From Candidatus Saccharimonadota bacterium (GTDB lineage Bacteria; Patescibacteriota; Saccharimonadia; Saccharimonadales; Saccharimonadaceae): 64,000 nt of DNA. Both the position numbers and the translations under genes were made by a program. The stretch spans positions 33,096 through 97,095 of the forward strand of contig JAFRKK010000013.1 of the NCBI GenBank assembly GCA_017431745.1, read 5' to 3'. Below the pieces are notes generated by a model. That model saw only the letters and a program-made list of their open reading frames with translations, did not search any database and had not been told where the DNA came from. Positions 15,421-62,070 of this stretch are shown one piece after another (within the stretch, counting starts at the first letter, position 1; each line of letters starts with the position of its first letter).

Positions 15421-15608
15421 AAAGCAAGAAATGCTTTTGATGGCATAATGAGATTTAGACCAGATTTCTAAATTGTAAGTTTTGCAACTCAACAATGAAA
15501 AAATGTCCCCAAGCGAACTTTAGTTCGCGAGTAAGGACATTTTTTCTTGCCTTGTGTTGCAAGTCTTACAATTTAGAAGTCCAAGCCATCAAAAACATTT
15601 CTTGCTTT
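15421..15608. repeat. Long palindromic element after rplU
   Basis: The outer arms 15421-15443 and 15586-15608 are inverted copies with one mismatch in 23. The middle arms (about 15468-15495 and 15550-15577) match at about 24 of 28. The innermost stem GAAAAAATGTCC/GGACATTTTTTC is perfect and surrounds GCGAAC...GTTCGC, so it can act as a terminator. It fills the whole rplU-parA gap except for the parA promoter. Confidence 0.85.
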
Positions 15609-15644: not shown

Positions 15645-16415
15645 ATGGCGAAGGTAATTTGTGTGACAAATCAAAAGGGCGGCGTAGGCAAAACTACCAC
15701 TGCTGTCAACATCTCTTTTTACCTCGCAAAAAACAAATTCAGAACTCTCCTAATTGATTTTGACCCCCAGGGCAACGCCACTTCCGGTCTTGGCATCGAT
15801 AAAAATGACAAGTCTCTCGGTAACACCATGACCGAAGTTCTGCTTGGCACCGCAACTCTCAGCCAGGCTATTCGCCCCACCAAGTACAAAAATTTTGCGC
15901 TCGCTCCAGCCACCCCTGAACTCGCTAACGCCGAGGTCGAAATTACCGCTCAGAACAAAAAATTTACTCGCCTGCGTGATGCTATTCGCACCGTAGAAGT
16001 AAACTACGACTATATTATCATCGACTCACCTCCATCATTGTCGCTTCTAACCGTCAATGGTATGATCGCGTCAAATTATTTACTCATTCCAGTTCAAACC
16101 GAGTTTTACGCCCTTGAAGGTGTAGCTCAATTGCTAGAATCCATGAAACTCGTAATGAAACAAGCCAACCCCAGCCTCAGACTTCTCGGCGTAGTCGCTA
16201 CTATGTACGACAAACGCACCAGCCTCTCCCCTCAGGTTTTCGCCGAAATCAAAAAATACTTCAAACAGCTTACTTTCAACACTACTATTCCTCGTAACGT
16301 TCGTGTCGCTGAGGCGCCATCCCATGGTGTGCCAGTCGGCGCCTACGATAAATTCAGCAAAGGCGCCAAAGCCTACAAAGATTTAACCAAAGAAATCATA
16401 GAAAGGACTAAATAA
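15645..16415 (+). CDS. parA: Chromosome partitioning ATPase ParA/Soj
   Basis: A 256-residue Walker-type ATPase that forms nucleoid-bound gradients to move ParB-parS. The deviant Walker A NQKGGVGKTTTAVN is near the N-terminus, LLIDFDPQGNATSGLG follows, and the Walker B-type segment is YIIIDSPPSL. The length is typical for chromosomal Soj. The stop TAA shares its last base with the ATG of parB, so the pair is translationally coupled. Confidence 0.95.
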   Translation: MAKVICVTNQKGGVGKTTTAVNISFYLAKNKFRTLLIDFDPQGNATSGLGIDKNDKSLGNTMTEVLLGTATLSQAIRPTKYKNFALAPATPELANAEVEITAQNKKFTRLRDAIRTVEVNYDYIIIDSPPSLSLLTVNGMIASNYLLIPVQTEFYALEGVAQLLESMKLVMKQANPSLRLLGVVATMYDKRTSLSPQVFAEIKKYFKQLTFNTTIPRNVRVAEAPSHGVPVGAYDKFSKGAKAYKDLTKEIIERTK

Positions 16416-17254
16416 TGGCAGGACTTGGTCGCGGTTTTGAATCGCTTATCCCTACAGAATTAATTGATGATGAGTTTGACCCCACAATCGCCGAAGATAA
16501 AAAGGAAAGCAAATTAAAAGAGATTAAACTAACTGACATTATTCGCGACGAAGAACAGCCCCGCCGTGAATTCAGCACCGAATCCCTCGAAGCCTTAGCC
16601 GCATCCATCAAGGAACATGGCGTCTTACAGCCCATCGTCGTTACCAGGGAAGAAGGTAAATATAAAATCGTCGCTGGTGAACGCCGTTGGCGTGCTTCTA
16701 AAATAGCCGGCCTTGATAAAATTCCCGCTATCGTTCGCACCCTGGACGCTCAAAACCGTCTTGAGCTTTCCATCATCGAAAACGCTCAACGTGAAGATTT
16801 AAATGCTATCGAGCTTGCCACCGCCTATGCTAAACTCCAAGCTCAATTTAACCTCAGCAGTGAAGATATCGCCGCCAAAGTCGGTAAATCTGAAACCTCG
16901 ATTAATAACACCTTAAGGCTCCTCAGCCTCCCCGATGACGTCAAAAAAATCATGATTAAAGAACGCCTCACCGAGGGAGTTATGCGCCCCCTTGTTTCTC
17001 GCGACGAAAAAGAAGTCAAAAAAGTCCTTCCCAAGATTATCTCAGAAGGTTGGACCGCTCGCAAAGTTGAACGTTATTTTGCTGAAAACAAGAAAAAATC
17101 CTCCGCTACCGCCATCAAACGGCGCGAGCACATCAAAGACGAAAATGCTCTCACCGCCAAATACAATGCGGTCGCCGAAATCAAAGGCCGTAGCCTCACC
17201 TTTCGCTGCAAATCTGGCGCTGAATTGAAAGAGTTAATAGAGAAGTTAAAATAA
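16415..17254 (+). CDS. parB: Chromosome partitioning protein ParB
   Basis: 279 residues. Begins AGLGRGFESLIP; the CTPase/ParB-box region has REDEEQPR-like RDEEQPRREF and GERRWRASKIAGL, followed by the ENAQREDLNAIE segment and a HTH (SSEDIAAKVGKSETSINNTLRLL). ParB spreads on DNA from parS as a CTP-gated clamp. I did not find a parS site. The last codons and stop (17242-17254) form the left arm of a palindromic element whose right arm is their inverted copy. Confidence 0.95.
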   Translation: MAGLGRGFESLIPTELIDDEFDPTIAEDKKESKLKEIKLTDIIRDEEQPRREFSTESLEALAASIKEHGVLQPIVVTREEGKYKIVAGERRWRASKIAGLDKIPAIVRTLDAQNRLELSIIENAQREDLNAIELATAYAKLQAQFNLSSEDIAAKVGKSETSINNTLRLLSLPDDVKKIMIKERLTEGVMRPLVSRDEKEVKKVLPKIISEGWTARKVERYFAENKKKSSATAIKRREHIKDENALTAKYNAVAEIKGRSLTFRCKSGAELKELIEKLK

Positions 17255-17319
17255 GGTTTTCAGGACCGTAAGCTTGGGCGAGCGCCCTTGAGCGTGTCCT
17301 GAAAACCTTATTTAACTTC
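17242..17319. repeat. Palindromic element overlapping the parB stop (core shared with gyrA)
   Basis: The left arm 17242-17261 includes the end of parB; the right arm 17301-17319 is its inverse apart from one bulged A. Between them, 17262-17299 is a 38-bp core (starts AGGACCGTAAGC, contains GGGCGAGCGCCC, ends GAGCGTGTCC) identical to 59567-59604 inside gyrA. The hairpin probably also terminates parB and the convergent lepB. Confidence 0.9.
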
Positions 17320-17323
17320 TTCC

Positions 17324-18004
17324 TTAAAATGTTCTAATTTTATCAAGTGGGAATAACCGCAAGATTACCGGCCCCACAATTCGGCAATAGGGAATTGTTC
17401 CAAGACCATTTCTGGAATCCCACGAATTTGAACCTTCACGATTATCACCTGACACAAACAGTTCACCTTCTGGTACTACCATATCCACCTCGCCCGAAGT
17501 ATGTTCTTTTGGCCCATCGTTTTCAGATTTCCGCCATTCTTCGTCGTATACGATTCCTTCGGTAGATTCTGCATCCGGGTAAATTTTCATTTCGCCATCT
17601 TTCACTACCACTCTTTCACCAGGGAAGGCAATTACTCGTTTAATGATATATTGGTCATTTACGTTAGATGGCACATTGCAAGTCATCGGGTTTTCCACCC
17701 CAGCCGCCTTGTATTCTGCCACTTTTTCCTCATCTTCGTTCAAAAACACAATAATCTGCCCCCGTTCTGGCACATATTCTTGCCCGGTAAAGTGTGACCA
17801 CGAAACCGCTGCACGATTCACTATCACTCGGTCATCACCGTGTAAAGTATTTTCCATTGACCCCCCCACCACGTTATACGACCGGTAAATGAAAGTATTC
17901 AAAAACAGTGTCCCAAGCACTATTGCCGCAATAAACCCGCCTAGGCTTAGCAAATCCTTTAGTAACGGGTGTTTCTGAAAAAAAGTTGGCTCCAATTCTT
18001 CCAT
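17324..18004 (-). CDS. lepB: Signal peptidase I
   Basis: A 226-residue membrane serine protease that removes signal peptides of exported proteins. One N-terminal membrane helix (GGFIAAIVLGTLFLNTFIY) precedes the catalytic Ser in GGSMENTL and the general-base Lys in YIIKRVIAFPGERV; box E is SGDNREGSNSWDSR. I chose ATG 18004 because TATAAT (18012-18017, minus strand) lies 7 bases upstream; the longer frame to 18184 runs through the divergent promoter. It serves the signal-peptide proteins at 13964, 28385 and 62329. Confidence 0.93.
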   Translation of the reverse strand: MEELEPTFFQKHPLLKDLLSLGGFIAAIVLGTLFLNTFIYRSYNVVGGSMENTLHGDDRVIVNRAAVSWSHFTGQEYVPERGQIIVFLNEDEEKVAEYKAAGVENPMTCNVPSNVNDQYIIKRVIAFPGERVVVKDGEMKIYPDAESTEGIVYDEEWRKSENDGPKEHTSGEVDMVVPEGELFVSGDNREGSNSWDSRNGLGTIPYCRIVGPVILRLFPLDKIRTF

Positions 18005-18063
18005 ACATGCTATTATACCATTTTTTAAGTTTAATTTAAATTTTTTGCTATAATATAATGTAT

Positions 18064-18846
18064 ATGGCAGATTATGTTTTAGCAAGAAAATCTCGCAATA
18101 TCGCAAGTAGTATGATTCATGTCTTTTTGAATCTTCTGCTTGGTGTGGGCGCAGTTCTAGTAACAGTTTTGTCCAACAACCCAATCCTCGGTATTATTTT
18201 AGTCCTAGCCTCAAAATGGCGTGTCTTTGCGGTGCGCGCTCGTTATTTCATGCTTAACCTCAAATCTAATCTAGTTGATTTAATCGTCGGTATTAGCGTA
18301 GTGCTAATCGCCTATTATGCCGGCCCCGAGTTCTTACCGGTAGACTTTATCCTCATGGCTTTTTACCCAATCTGGCTTCTATTTATCAAGCCTCTCTCAA
18401 ACGAAACTGCCGCCATGGTTCAATCTCTCATCGCCGTATTTCTTGGTATGTCCGCCGCCACTATTATGACTGCGAATTTAGATTCCATTGCCATCGTCCT
18501 CTTAGCCTTCCTGATTGGCTATGCTGCTAGTCGCCACACCCTCATTCAAAGCAACGACAAAGATTTCACACTTACCACTCTGGTCTGTGGGCTAGTCTTT
18601 TCAGAGATTGCTTGGCTTTGCAACTCCTGGTCCATCATTTATACTTTTGGCGCCACTGGTATTCGTATCCCACAACTCGCCATCATTCTCACCATCTTTG
18701 CTTTCGTTTATAATTATGCTCGCCGAGCCATGATTAAATATCAAGCCGATTTTCGTTTCAAGCATATTATTGGTCCAGTTATTTTTGGCGCGGCACTCGT
18801 CGCCGTAATCGTTATATTCTTTAGCAATCCAATATTTAATATCTAA
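18064..18846 (+). CDS. Polytopic membrane protein of unknown function
   Basis: About 261 residues with some seven hydrophobic segments, beginning near residue 14 and ending with VIFGAALVAVIVIFFSNPIF. No transporter or enzyme motif is evident. TATAAT is at 18049-18054. ATG 18058 would lie before the likely transcription start, so ATG 18064 (MADYVLARKS) is preferred; the transcript would be essentially leaderless. It lies 9 bases before htrA, so they are likely co-transcribed. Confidence 0.75.
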   Translation: MADYVLARKSRNIASSMIHVFLNLLLGVGAVLVTVLSNNPILGIILVLASKWRVFAVRARYFMLNLKSNLVDLIVGISVVLIAYYAGPEFLPVDFILMAFYPIWLLFIKPLSNETAAMVQSLIAVFLGMSAATIMTANLDSIAIVLLAFLIGYAASRHTLIQSNDKDFTLTTLVCGLVFSEIAWLCNSWSIIYTFGATGIRIPQLAIILTIFAFVYNYARRAMIKYQADFRFKHIIGPVIFGAALVAVIVIFFSNPIFNI

Positions 18847-28181: not shown

Positions 28182-28351
28182 GTGGAACGTATGAAATAAT
28201 AGTTGAATCGATATTTTTATATCAGATGATTCACAGAAAAATAGGCGTCATTAGGGCGTGTCTGTGAATCGATTCGACCAACAGTTCATGCGTTCCACCT
28301 AGTGGCGCCTTTTTATATGTACGCCTTTCATGTTAAAAAGGTGCCACTAGG
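28182..28351 (+). ncRNA. Structured leader or small RNA upstream of a surface gene
   Basis: Begins at the expected transcription start. A rod closes between 28182-28195 and 28285-28298 (GTGGAACG/CGTTCCAC plus TATGAA/TTCATG), with inner pairs GTTGAATCGAT/ATCGATTCGAC and TCACAGA/TCTGTGA. Then 28298-28315 and 28334-28351 form an 18-bp hairpin with one mismatch. A third, competing hairpin (GCG-CCAC/GTGG-CGC followed by CTTTTT, 28290-28314) looks like a terminator. This could be an attenuator, or a stand-alone RNA. No known family is recognised. Confidence 0.6.
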
Positions 28352-29817: not shown

Positions 29818-29994
29818 AGAACTCCAAACTGAATTTTTCTGAGCATTGAACGAACCAAGTAATTTTTGGTGATTTTTAGAAAATTCCTGAGCGAGACCCC
29901 CGTCCGGCGTGAGACGAAGGAATTTTCGTTAAGAAAATCACTAAAAATTACTTGACGTGAGTGAACCGCGAAGAAAAGTTTAGTTTGGAGTTCT
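29818..29994. repeat. Long palindromic element before nrdD
   Basis: Outer arms AGAACTCCAAACT (29818-29830) and its inverse (about 29982-29994); inner arms CAAGTAATTTTT plus GTGATTTT against AAAATCAC plus TAAAAATTACTTG; innermost AAAATTCCT/AGGAATTTT. Bulges contain GAGCATTGAACGAAC, GAGCGAGAC and GTGAGTGAAC. The words GAGCATT-GACGAACC and AATTTTT are shared with the element at 11219. Bases 29732-29817 hold no gene. Confidence 0.8.
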
Positions 29995-49153: not shown

Positions 49154-49265
49154 GCGAAACTATATTTGTTAAATAGCACTAGTTGAACCTATAATGCGGC
49201 TATTTACGCTGTTTGTTCAACTAGAGCAAATATAGTTTCGCGACTAAGTAAATAGTCGCATTTTT
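49154..49265 (+). ncRNA. Rod-shaped RNA with its own terminator
   Basis: GCGAAACTATATTTG (49154-49168) pairs perfectly with 49227-49241; inside, CTAGTTGAAC (49179-49188) pairs perfectly with 49215-49224. GCGACTA/TAGTCGC plus ATTTTTG (49240-49265) is a terminator that shares 2 bases with the rod. Next comes the ribosome site of the 49292 gene. It resembles the 28182 RNA in layout. Confidence 0.6.
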
Positions 49266-59511: not shown

Positions 59512-62070
59512 ATGAAAGACGACACTAACAACAAACAAGCAGAAAGCCCGATGGATGCGTCCTCCGAGGACCGTAAGCTTGGGCGAGCGCCCTTGAGCGT
59601 GTCCGAGAAGGATGCATCCGAGGGCTATAAAGATGGTTTAGAGATTAAACCAGTCGAGAATACCATGGAGGACTACTTCCTCCGTTACTCCATGTCCGTC
59701 ATTGTTGACCGCGCCCTCCCTGACGTTCGTGATGGCTTGAAGCCTGTTAACCGCCGCATCCTCTACACCATGAACAAAAATGGTTGGAAGGCTCCTCATG
59801 CCACAGTAAAATCCGCTCGTATCGTCGGTGATGTCATGGGTAAATACCACCCTCATGGTGACTCCTCTATTTACATGGCGATGGTCAACCTCGCCCAGCC
59901 TTGGAAAATGCGCTACACTCTTATCGAGGGTCAAGGTAACTTCGGTTCCATGGATGGTGATGAGCCAGCTGCTTATCGTTACACTGAGGCTCGCATGGAC
60001 AAGGTTGGCGCCGAGCTTCTAACTGATATCGAGAAGGATACCGTAGATTTTCGTGATAACTTTGATGGCACCGAGCAGGAACCAGTAGTTCTACCAGCCG
60101 CCCTCCCTAACATCCTCTTGAACGGTCAGATGGGTATTGCTGTCGGCATGGCCACTAACATTCCCCCGCACAATCTTGGAGAATTAGTTGATGCTACTGT
60201 CGCTCAGATTGACAACCCGGATATCACCCTTGATGAATTAATGAAGCACGTCAAAGGCCCAGATTTTCCAACTGGTGCTGAAGTTTATGGCGGGGCACCA
60301 ATGAAACAGGCTTATGCCACCGGTAAAGGCTCTGTAGTCATTCGCGCTGTTACTAATATCGAAGAACGTAAAAATGGTCGCTATAACATCGTAATTACAG
60401 AGGTACCTTACGGTATGAGCAAGGAAGGCTTCATCGAGAAAGTTCGCGAACTTGTCCTCGCCAAAAAGCTAGACCACATCGCTGATGCTCGTGACGAATC
60501 AGCTCGCGGCAAAATCCGTATCGTAGTAGAACTCAAAAAAGACGCTTTCCCGAAGAAAATTCTCAACCAACTCTATAAAATGACTGGTCTCCAGACTGCT
60601 TTTCACTACAATATGCTAGCCCTAGTCGATGGCGTTCAGCCTCGCATCCTCGGACTCAAGGAAATCCTAGCTGAATTCATCAAACATCGCCAGGTAGTCA
60701 CTAGGCGCCGTACTGAGTTTGAATTGAAAAAAGCCAAAGAGCGTGCCCATATCCTCGAAGGTTTGAAAATTGCTCTCGACAACATCGACGAGGTTATCGC
60801 TACTATTCGCGCCTCCTATGATGACGCCGACAAACAGCTCATGAAGAAGTTTGGCCTCTCTGAGATTCAGGCCAACGCTATCTTACAAATGCAACTACGT
60901 CGTCTCCAGGGGCTAGAACGTGATAAGATTGAAGACGAGTTGAAACAGCTTCATGAACTAATCAAAAAGCTAGAAGCTATTCTCGCTGACGAGAAAGAAA
61001 TTCTCCGCGTTATCAAGGAAGAACTTCTCGCTCTCAAGGAAAAATACGGTGATGAACGCCGCTCTAAGATTATCAATCACGAAGTTGGTAAATTCTCCGA
61101 AGAAGAACTCATCCCTGAGGAAGAAAGCGTTATCTTACTCACCTCTGAAAATTATATGAAACGCGTCCCGCAGACTGATTTCCGCAAACAAAACAGAGGC
61201 GGTAAGGGTAAACGCGGTATGACCACTAAGGAAGAGGATGTTATTGCTCAGATTCTTACTGCCAATTCACATGATTATCTGTTATTCTTCACTAACCAGG
61301 GAAGATTATTCCGTTTGAAAGCTTACGAAGTTCCACAGGCTTCTCTGGCCGCTAAGGGTACGGCTGCTGTCAACCTGCTTAACATGCATCCCGAGGAAAA
61401 AATCACCGCTATCATCAAACAGGGTGATGCGGGCGCAGACGGCTATCTCTTTATGGCTACTAAAAAAGGTACCATCAAAAAATCTGCCATCAAAGATTTC
61501 TTCAATGTCAGAAGCAACGGTCTTATTGCCATTAAGCTCGACGCAGGCGATGAACTTCGCTGGGTCAAAGAGACCACCGGTGACCACGATATCGTTATCA
61601 GCACTTCTGCTGGCCAAGCCACCAGATTCAATGAAACAGAAGTTCGCGCTATGGGCCGCGCCGCCAGAGGCGTTCGTGGTATGCGTCTCCGTCCAAAAGA
61701 CGAAATCGTTGGCATGGATGTCATTACAGACCCTAACCAAAAACTTATCGTAGTTTCAGCTAACGGTTACGGCAAGGCTTGTTTAGTTTCCAACTTCCCG
61801 CCTCATAAGCGTGGTGGTGTCGGTATCAAAGTTGCCGCTATTACCGCTAAAACCGGTCCAATCGTTGCGGTGCACACCTTAGATCCATTAGCTAAGGAAG
61901 TCATTATGATGTCGACAAAAGGCCAAGCTATCCGTGTCGCAATGAAAGAAATTCCGACTCTCGGCCGCGCTACTCAGGGCGTTCGCATCATGAAAATGTC
62001 CGACGGCGATACCGTAGCTTCTATCGGTATAGTCTTACCTGAGCCTGATAGTGATACTAAAAACAGTTAA
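59512..62070 (+). CDS. gyrA: DNA gyrase subunit A with palindrome-encoded N-terminal insert
   Basis: 852 residues. The catalytic Tyr is in AAYRYTEARM; PDVRDGLKPVNRRILY is the winged-helix region, and a GyrA-box-like QNRGGKG (canonical QRRGGKG) supports gyrase rather than topo IV. Residues about 14-37 come from a palindromic element whose 38-bp core equals that after parB. AAGGAGGAACT precedes ATG, 9 bases after gyrB. The conserved core begins near residue 50, so the insert lies in a tolerant N-terminal tail. Confidence 0.96.
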   Translation: MKDDTNNKQAESPMDASSEDRKLGRAPLSVSEKDASEGYKDGLEIKPVENTMEDYFLRYSMSVIVDRALPDVRDGLKPVNRRILYTMNKNGWKAPHATVKSARIVGDVMGKYHPHGDSSIYMAMVNLAQPWKMRYTLIEGQGNFGSMDGDEPAAYRYTEARMDKVGAELLTDIEKDTVDFRDNFDGTEQEPVVLPAALPNILLNGQMGIAVGMATNIPPHNLGELVDATVAQIDNPDITLDELMKHVKGPDFPTGAEVYGGAPMKQAYATGKGSVVIRAVTNIEERKNGRYNIVITEVPYGMSKEGFIEKVRELVLAKKLDHIADARDESARGKIRIVVELKKDAFPKKILNQLYKMTGLQTAFHYNMLALVDGVQPRILGLKEILAEFIKHRQVVTRRRTEFELKKAKERAHILEGLKIALDNIDEVIATIRASYDDADKQLMKKFGLSEIQANAILQMQLRRLQGLERDKIEDELKQLHELIKKLEAILADEKEILRVIKEELLALKEKYGDERRSKIINHEVGKFSEEELIPEEESVILLTSENYMKRVPQTDFRKQNRGGKGKRGMTTKEEDVIAQILTANSHDYLLFFTNQGRLFRLKAYEVPQASLAAKGTAAVNLLNMHPEEKITAIIKQGDAGADGYLFMATKKGTIKKSAIKDFFNVRSNGLIAIKLDAGDELRWVKETTGDHDIVISTSAGQATRFNETEVRAMGRAARGVRGMRLRPKDEIVGMDVITDPNQKLIVVSANGYGKACLVSNFPPHKRGGVGIKVAAITAKTGPIVAVHTLDPLAKEVIMMSTKGQAIRVAMKEIPTLGRATQGVRIMKMSDGDTVASIGIVLPEPDSDTKNS
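59553..59619. repeat. Palindromic element inside gyrA
   Basis: Core 59567-59604 identical to 17262-17299; flanks GGATGCGTCCTCCG (59553-59566) and 59605-59619 form inverted arms with small mismatches. Read in gyrA frame as SEDRKLGRAPLSVSEK. Confidence 0.9.

What the first reader, a model, noticed from the sequence alone, without database searches (positions are those of the whole stretch)
59553..59619. A 38-bp palindromic core inside gyrA is identical to one at the parB stop, but the arms differ
59567-59604 equals 17262-17299 base for base, while the arms differ and match each locus (parB-derived arms at 17242/17301, gyrA-specific arms at 59553/59605). In gyrA the element is translated. A conserved core inside locus-specific inverted arms suggests a mobile hairpin that extends its stem by copying the flanking DNA, or selection for stems around a mobile core. 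It recalls Rickettsia palindromic elements, but those carry their own arms.
Basis: partly seen in the sequence, partly recalled or inferred. Interest (0 to 1): 0.85.

Follow-up and report, generated by a model that had tools for sequence, protein, structure and literature searches.

The report
Mobile hairpin cap, host-copied stem
The same 38-letter DNA hairpin cap sits inside gyrA and beside parB here and recurs in Saccharibacteria, bifidobacteria and a few other genomes, each time on a stem of different local sequence, and at some sites one side of that stem is likely an inverted copy of the neighbouring gene made when the cap arrived, which would make it an unusual kind of mobile DNA.

Summary
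In detail: window 59567-59604 and 17262-17299 are identical and the arms differ. The core is a dispersed structured element: 15 copies in this 744-kb genome, matches in 63 of 174 genomes of the genus, copies in Bifidobacterium and a Kaiserbacteria MAG, but only 1 of 313 genera in a phylum sample. Two base pairs covary in 168 and 161 of 171 copies, one of them a loop-to-strand pair. In 144 of 153 copies it caps a local stem of about 28 pairs. In gyrA and other genes it lies in frame (RKLGRAPLS). At four gene-end sites, 11 of 14 relatives with a short empty site keep one arm as host sequence and mostly lack the other, its inverted copy. Against this, two relatives at parB favour the other arm, and the two closest empty sites lack both arms. 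Other cap families occupy the same gyrA, priA and murB sites in relatives. I favour a mobile cap whose stem is made by fold-back copying of a flank (0.45) over whole hairpins moving with drifting arms, or caps entering ready-made hairpins. No enzyme, and no prior description in my searches, was found.

The parts
59567..59604 (+). 38-bp core (cap) inside gyrA; closing pairs GGAC 59568-59571 with GTCC 59601-59604; inner hairpin GGGC-GAGC-GCCC
   Evidence: identical to 17262-17299; model R1 hit 59563-59610, 67.4 bits
59554..59567 (+). gyrA-specific left arm, partner of 59605-59618 (four mismatches)
   Evidence: inverted repeat read; folds as a stem
59605..59618 (+). gyrA-specific right arm; GA.GA tandem mismatch next to the cap
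59512..62070 (+). gyrA; the insert lies in frame (SSEDRKLGRAPLSVSEKD) upstream of the conserved part, which begins at residue 48
   Evidence: NCBIfam gyrA match from residue 48; ORF
17262..17299 (+). 38-bp core (cap) 3' of the parB-family gene
   Evidence: model R1 hit 17258-17305, 72.4 bits
17240..17262 (+). left arm: C-terminal codons and stop of the parB-family gene plus 8 nt; aligned to host sequence (15-25 of 25 bases) in five of seven relatives with a short empty site, 7 and 3 in the other two
   Evidence: sequence; stem found de novo
17300..17322 (+). right arm: inverted copy of the left arm; aligned in only 3-6 of 25 bases in five of those seven relatives, but in 25 and 23 in L252 and L254
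   Evidence: sequence
16415..17254 (+). ParB-family partition protein gene whose end forms the left arm
   Evidence: ParB_N and HTH_ParB
17324..18184 (-). convergent signal peptidase I gene beyond the right arm
   Evidence: Peptidase_S26 / sigpep_I_bact on the same ORF in L003

Best explanation
The 38-bp core is the conserved, structure-forming cap of a dispersed hairpin element that likely spreads as a cap and likely receives its stem on arrival by fold-back copying of one host flank. Shown: copies are dispersed, absent at orthologous sites in relatives, near-identical in the cap, different in the arms, and structurally constrained in both. Shown in 11 of 14 short empty relatives at four sites (dus/murD, parB, a CDP-alcohol phosphatidyltransferase gene, L138): the left arm aligns to host sequence better than the right arm, which is its inverted copy. 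Inferred: a 3' end at the target is extended through a copy of the cap (template switch or an incoming single strand), the cap's end pairs back on GGAC/GTCC, the polymerase copies the host flank just made for about 25-30 nt, then returns to the original template. Inferred: later template switches inside the hairpin keep the arms complementary, flip the cap and perhaps replace it with other caps. Insertions in genes persist where the one open sense frame, or an antisense frame, keeps the protein in register. Untested: the enzyme, transcription, and any benefit to the host.
For: Empty sites: of 27 relatives fetched at 4 loci, 14 have at most 50 nt between aligned flanks (cut-off set by me after seeing the rows); in these the left arm aligns in 229 of 350 bases (157 identical), the right arm in 84 of 350 (64 identical); left is favoured in 5 of 5 at dus/murD, 4 of 7 at parB, 1 of 1 and 1 of 1 at the other two. 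At dus/murD the left arm encodes EARKIIS, also encoded in element-free L260, and host sequence resumes after cap plus inverted copy (by eye). Arms complementary in 141 of 153 copies beyond the 99th percentile of re-paired arms; about 28 pairs, quartiles 26-30, n=144. Cap covariation 168/171 and 161/171; covariation score 0.420 against 0.142 +- 0.019, 0 of 500 shuffles. Cap flipped on a stem that looks homologous at two loci: L125 vs L070, and L134 vs G026/G137 (by eye). Of 36 intragenic copies 20 sense and 16 antisense; 19 of 20 sense in one frame.
Against: At parB two of seven short relatives (L252, L254) align to the right arm instead and L251 to neither. Counting all 24 of 27 relatives with acceptable flanks, including those with 60-290 nt of other DNA between them, the contrast shrinks to 462 against 272 of 600. 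At the closest empty sites essentially neither arm is present: G131 vs L070 (0/25, 0/25) and vs L125 (6/25, 0/25), and Bifidobacterium G972 vs L136 (0/25, 0/25) (matched flanks 97-100% identical for G972), unless these are losses or whole-region replacements. At L001 six relatives give no consistent side; at murB the alignment is weak. Strict cap conservation across phyla and the narrow stem length suggest a dedicated recognising factor, which I did not find. Isolated non-canonical stem pairs are G.U 71 against A.C 37, a mild strand bias that a purely double-strand process would not give.
Confidence: 0.45

Rival explanations
1. The whole hairpin, arms included, moves as a unit (a small palindromic mobile repeat), and the arms then diverge fast by compensatory change, so that only the cap still looks shared.
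For: Both arms are new at the two closest empty sites. 32 of 81 changed stem pairs in 20 ortholog comparisons are double changes that restore pairing. Many copies share the stretch next to the cap (TTTTGAGGAC...GTCCGAAAA).
Against: At dus/murD, the phosphatidyltransferase gene, L138 and, less consistently, parB one arm aligns to the pre-existing end of the host gene, which an imported arm would not match. Copies in one genome with identical caps have unrelated arms.
Confidence: 0.25
2. The cap inserts into the tip of hairpins that already exist, mainly intrinsic terminators, so stems are local because they were there first.
For: In Bifidobacterium, 9 of 11 cap-free relatives at three cap sites have a plain hairpin with a stem of 11 or more (some with mismatches; no shuffle test) in the fetched stretch, and L443 shares the ten stem-base letters GAAGCCCGGC with the capped L062. 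Plain hairpins also lie at the parB site in L250, L252 and L259 (13, 8 and 18 pairs) and at L310 (by eye).
Against: In five element-free relatives at dus/murD (L260, L262, L263, L264, L267) only short or imperfect hairpins are found, best score 6.5 (L260: 14 pairs with mismatches). About half of the Saccharibacteria-group copies are inside genes and 9 of 33 intergenic ones are between divergent genes. Headless gyrA relatives have a significant hairpin in 1 of 5.
Confidence: 0.18
3. It is a functional structured RNA or DNA-binding site kept by its hosts, not a mobile element; the long stem only needs to pair.
For: Strong covariation; some Bifidobacterium hairpins are conserved across species while nearby flank changes (L062 group).
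Against: Presence/absence at orthologous sites, both orientations inside genes, patchy range: 1 of 313 genera of the phylum sample but also another phylum. No Rfam family above its gathering score.
Confidence: 0.09
4. Ordinary coding sequence of GyrA that happens to resemble a parB-side palindrome.
For: It lies in frame in GyrA.
Against: 0 in 100 shuffles; 106 of the 120 listed GyrA homologues lack it; non-coding copies elsewhere.
Confidence: 0.01

Closest known systems
Rickettsia palindromic elements (RPE)
   Same: Palindromic, dispersed, translated in frame inside conserved proteins; also intergenic (passages of PMC2229807)
   Different: RPE are 105-146 bp with terminal inverted repeats; here about 40 nt in the middle are shared and the arms are local. 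Different phyla.
REPINs mobilised by RAYT transposases
   Same: Short hairpins, many copies, compensatory changes in the pairing part (passages of PMC3116915)
   Different: In REPINs two conserved regions flank a less conserved spacer; here the middle is conserved and the ends vary. Y1 transposase family not found in the own genome; in 6 of 113 genus genomes, of which only G116 carries the cap.
Quasipalindrome template-switch mutation
   Same: A nascent strand used as its own template makes an inverted repeat more perfect (passages of PMC7202029); the proposed way of making and keeping the arms
   Different: Known events adjust an existing imperfect repeat; here a conserved cap is present at the tip of each.
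Repetitive hairpin-forming elements of organelles (sponge mitochondria, Volvox)
   Same: Repetitive hairpins or palindromes in organelle DNA (search listing only, PMC2800124 and PMC2670323)
   Different: Not read further; host-derived arms not compared.

Membership tests
Rickettsia palindromic element | in-frame insertion in conserved proteins | tested here: met
   19 of 20 sense intragenic copies in one frame; GyrA, MurB, and PriA (antisense) identified. Translation itself not tested
Rickettsia palindromic element | element-specific terminal inverted repeats | tested here: not met
   arms differ between copies with identical caps
REPIN / RAYT system | conserved REP sequences at both ends | tested here: not met
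   conserved part is the centre
REPIN / RAYT system | RAYT (Y1_Tnp family) in the genome | tested here: not met
   PF01797: no match in own genome; 6 of 113 genus genomes, one of them (G116, weak match) a carrier of the cap
MITE | terminal inverted repeats of a transposon plus target-site duplication | tested here: not met
   no shared ends; target duplication judged only by eye in the alignments, none consistent
intrinsic terminator | 3' of genes, hairpin followed by a T run | tested here: inconclusive
   several copies lie at gene ends, but 9 of 33 intergenic copies of the Saccharibacteria group are between divergent genes and 36 of 69 are inside genes; T run not scored
Rfam RNA family | match above a gathering score | tested here: not met
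   none at the element in the window; in 12 loci two miRNA-precursor families overlap elements far below gathering (MIR3444 38 of 80 bits at L060; MIR2646 26 of 245 bits at L006), taken as chance long-hairpin matches
template-switch palindrome | one arm pre-existing, other arm its inverted copy | tested here: inconclusive
   favoured in 11 of 14 short empty relatives at 4 loci, not at L070/L125 and L136, unclear at L001 and murB

The most novel reading that the evidence does not exclude
A new class of mobile DNA that consists of a hairpin cap alone: unrelated structured caps (this one, a three-way-junction cap with 17 copies in the same genome, and others) spread between sites and across phyla, build a stem of about 28 bp from whatever host DNA they land beside, flip on it and replace one another, and are read through as protein when they land in genes.
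Probability: 0.28. Interest if true: 0.92.

Novelty: new variant of a known kind. Interest (0 to 1): 0.77.

Why it matters
Known small palindromic repeats such as REPINs are recognised by their conserved ends. An element with a conserved tip on host-made arms would explain how hairpins can arise and be kept at many places in a genome, would be easy for ordinary repeat finders to miss, and would be a natural case of fold-back copying. In this Saccharibacteria genus, with genomes of mostly 0.5 to 1 Mb, it sits inside conserved proteins (GyrA, PriA, MurB). The sharing of the cap between Bifidobacterium and Saccharibacteria, which can live in the same guts (recalled), points to exchange between phyla.

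Tried and rejected
Looked for a linked mobile gene: ORFs of 90 aa or more in 114 loci were clustered; the 15 clusters printed look like ordinary genes (an ABC ATPase, an aminoacyl-tRNA synthetase-like protein and the like, labels recalled), none like a transposase. Y1 transposase: no match in the own genome; 6 of 113 genus genomes, of which G116 (weak match) has three cap matches and the other five none. Other enzyme families were not searched. Phage, plasmid and viral collections: no match. Rfam: none above gathering.

Head swap on a conserved stem: at the L125 locus G143 has another cap, but since its arms contain the same host gene end, independent insertion explains it as well, so I do not claim it; only the flips at L125/L070 and L134/G026 are called homologous, by eye. 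Idea that headless gyrA relatives keep a bare stem: significant in 1 of 5 (L198, 3 of 200 shuffles), dropped. G.U against A.C: 185:145 with a loose stem definition, 71:37 with a strict one; neither resembles a strongly RNA-selected helix nor a symmetric process, left open.

Selection of rows: one search left out 9 of 153 copies with weak stems, one. One search used 20 ortholog comparisons that I picked, partly from the 62 pairs, partly from later loci or likely pairs not in that list (L061/L115, L103/L151); L060, L062 and L140 serve more than once, so they are not independent. My first empty-site count used 10 relatives chosen by hand (191 against 30 of 250); on checking I ran all 27 fetched at the four loci: 24 have acceptable flanks, 14 of these a short empty site. 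That weakened parB, and I lowered the main odds from 0.50 to 0.45 and raised the whole-hairpin rival from 0.22 to 0.25. In some searches unclassified Patescibacteria loci (L142, L148, L155) were counted in the group called Sac; the single sense copy out of frame is one of them (L155). Genes were called as longest open frames.

Full report
What is there. The 38 bases at 59567-59604 and 17262-17299 are identical, and the bases beyond differ on both sides. In the window there are only these two copies, by pattern with up to 3 mismatches (0 in 100 shuffles) and by a covariance model. The gyrA copy lies in the N-terminal extension of GyrA; the family profile begins at residue 48. The parB copy lies between a ParB-family gene and a convergent signal peptidase I gene.

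The family. The own genome (744,470 bases, 13 contigs) has 8 copies at up to 3 mismatches and 15 by model R1 at E 0.001. Each of the 8 has its own arms. A 24-base inner core (up to 3 mismatches) occurs in 63 of 174 genomes of the genus, with 0 hits for the reversed control in the rows shown, and in a family sample in 29 of 295 genomes, 2 of 61 genera. By the model at E 0.01, 8 Bifidobacterium genomes have 4 to 26 copies each and the Kaiserbacteria genome 6. In a phylum sample 3 of 379 genomes, 1 of 313 genera, match; in an order sample around Bifidobacterium 4 of 248, all four listed in the genus search; both with stricter filters. No match in viral contigs, phages or plasmids. This patchy range across phyla suggests horizontal spread; I built no tree.

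The cap is structured. In 171 distinct copies, core positions 9 and 16 pair in 168 (G-C 87, C-G 81) and loop position 13 pairs with strand position 24 in 161 (G-C 95, A-T 66). In the pattern these positions could vary independently between two letters each, so the pairing is not an effect of that search. Both loop-pair states occur in Saccharibacteria and in Bifidobacterium (2 of 39 G-C). On 24 chosen sequences the covariation score is 0.420 against 0.142 +- 0.019 for shuffles, 0 of 500, and no slid register comes near; the number of further pair types does not exceed shuffles (198 of 500). Next to the closing GGAC/GTCC an A.G mismatch is common (66 of 171 at positions -8 and 31), often part of a GA.GA tandem, and then come the local arms. 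No Rfam family matches above its gathering score.

The arms. Beyond the cap-derived bases the two arms are complementary in 141 of 153 copies above the 99th percentile of arms re-paired between copies. The paired length is about 28 with quartiles 26 and 30 (n=144 of 153). In 20 ortholog comparisons, 375 pairs were unchanged, 32 changed on both sides and still pair, 6 changed on both sides and do not, 13 became G.U, 19 broke on one side, 11 were restored by one change, 6 fell in gaps. So pairing is kept, by selection or by copying.

Where the arms come from. I searched the genus with flanks of 7 own copies and of 10 copies from other genomes, and fetched short stretches. At dus/murD the left arm of the own copy encodes the end of Dus (EARKIIS); L260 without the element encodes the same residues; what is new is the cap and an inverted copy of that arm, after which host sequence resumes (by eye). 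For a fair count I aligned all 27 relatives fetched at dus/murD, parB, the CDP-alcohol phosphatidyltransferase gene and L138. Fourteen have at most 50 nt between aligned flanks; in these the left arm aligns in 229 of 350 bases (157 identical) and the right arm in 84 of 350 (64 identical). Left is favoured in 5 of 5 at dus/murD, 4 of 7 at parB, and in the single relative at each of the other two. At parB L252 and L254 favour the right arm and L251 neither. With all 24 relatives that have acceptable flanks, including those with long unrelated DNA between them, the figures are 462 and 272 of 600. Other loci are less kind. At L089 and L134 the right arm aligns better (8-13 of 25 against 0-4, except L310 with 12 against 16). 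At L001 and murB the result is mixed or weak. At the two closest empty sites, G131 against L070 and L125, and Bifidobacterium G972 against L136, essentially neither arm is present. These could be losses or replacement of the whole stretch, but they could equally mean that hairpins arrive with both arms.

Flips and neighbours. L070 and L125 are the same intergenic site in related genomes with the cap in opposite orientation on a similar stem; L134 against G026 and G137 shows the same, with a longer cap. In Bifidobacterium, 9 of 11 cap-free relatives at three sites have a plain hairpin with a stem of 11 or more in the fetched stretch.

Inside genes. Of 69 Saccharibacteria-group copies with enough flank, 36 are inside open frames, 20 sense and 16 antisense; 19 of the 20 sense copies are in the one frame without stops. 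Carriers include gyrA, murB (sense) and priA (antisense). The GyrA site is a hot spot: of the 120 homologues listed, 14 carry this insert type, 36 other recognisable insert types (B/E 23, F 6, D 5, G 2; types named by me from peptide motifs), 70 none recognised (a stricter motif gave 12). The DNA of several of these also folds as a long hairpin with a different cap. The B/E cap, searched by its conserved 25-base hairpin at up to 2 mismatches, is in 78 of 113 genus genomes and has 17 copies in the own genome, and it too sits on stems of local sequence in the loci I folded. The priA and murB sites carry further caps in relatives.

Mechanism and choice. One process that makes an inverted copy of a flank beside a conserved tip is self-templated synthesis from a folded 3' end, as described for quasipalindrome mutations (PMC7202029, passages). 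I therefore favour a mobile cap with fold-back copying, at 0.45, because host gene ends form one arm at dus/murD and, with less consistency or fewer relatives, at three other sites. Whole-hairpin movement with fast compensatory change (0.25) and insertion into ready-made hairpins (0.18) remain open, and the truth may mix them. What moves the cap is unknown; the Y1 transposase of REPIN systems was not found in the own genome and in only 6 of 113 genus genomes.

Prior art. Searches of the open-access library listed no description: 'palindromic element' with Saccharibacteria, a core string, and wider combinations (listings of the best 10-15 only). RPE and REPIN papers were read as passages only; in a stem-loop family survey the terms I looked for do not occur (PMC2267715). 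Subscription papers and preprints are not covered, so absence in print is not established.

Noticed in passing
own genome, 17 places, none in the window: A second cap family (CGAGCCCCGTAACGACGGG.GCGAG, three-way junction) on local stems, in 78 of 113 genus genomes.
   Followed up: partly
window 15463-15581: Long hairpin with a different structured tip (GTCCCCAAGCGAACTTTAGTTCGCGAGTAAGGAC); a similar stretch lies in G138 (L253).
   Followed up: no
window 29856-29954: 21-bp stem around a 57-nt structured tip (TTCCTGAGCGAG...GACGAAGGAA).
   Followed up: no
window 49154-49241 and 28182-28298: Further long inverted repeats with tips of 55-58 nt, not classified.
   Followed up: no
L087 (about 160 bases from its cap), L145 (within 150 bases of its cap), L197: A sister cap with AAGACTTGG in place of AAGCTTGG, in both Bifidobacterium and Saccharibacteria.
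   Followed up: no
L244, L398, L096, L137, L150: A second conserved internal loop further down the stem (GGGTG...CAGGACCC), 7 of 207 copies by a simple motif, also seen in other caps at priA and murB sites (L243, L247, L248).
   Followed up: partly
L079 6834 and 7095: Two caps 261 bp apart in Bifidobacterium erythrocebi with identical repeated flank pieces and slightly different arms.
   Followed up: no
G026:C14 (L305), G137:C1 (L306), G152:C2 (L302): Longer caps with an extra hairpin (starting GCCCCTTGGGACGC) between core and closing strand.
   Followed up: no
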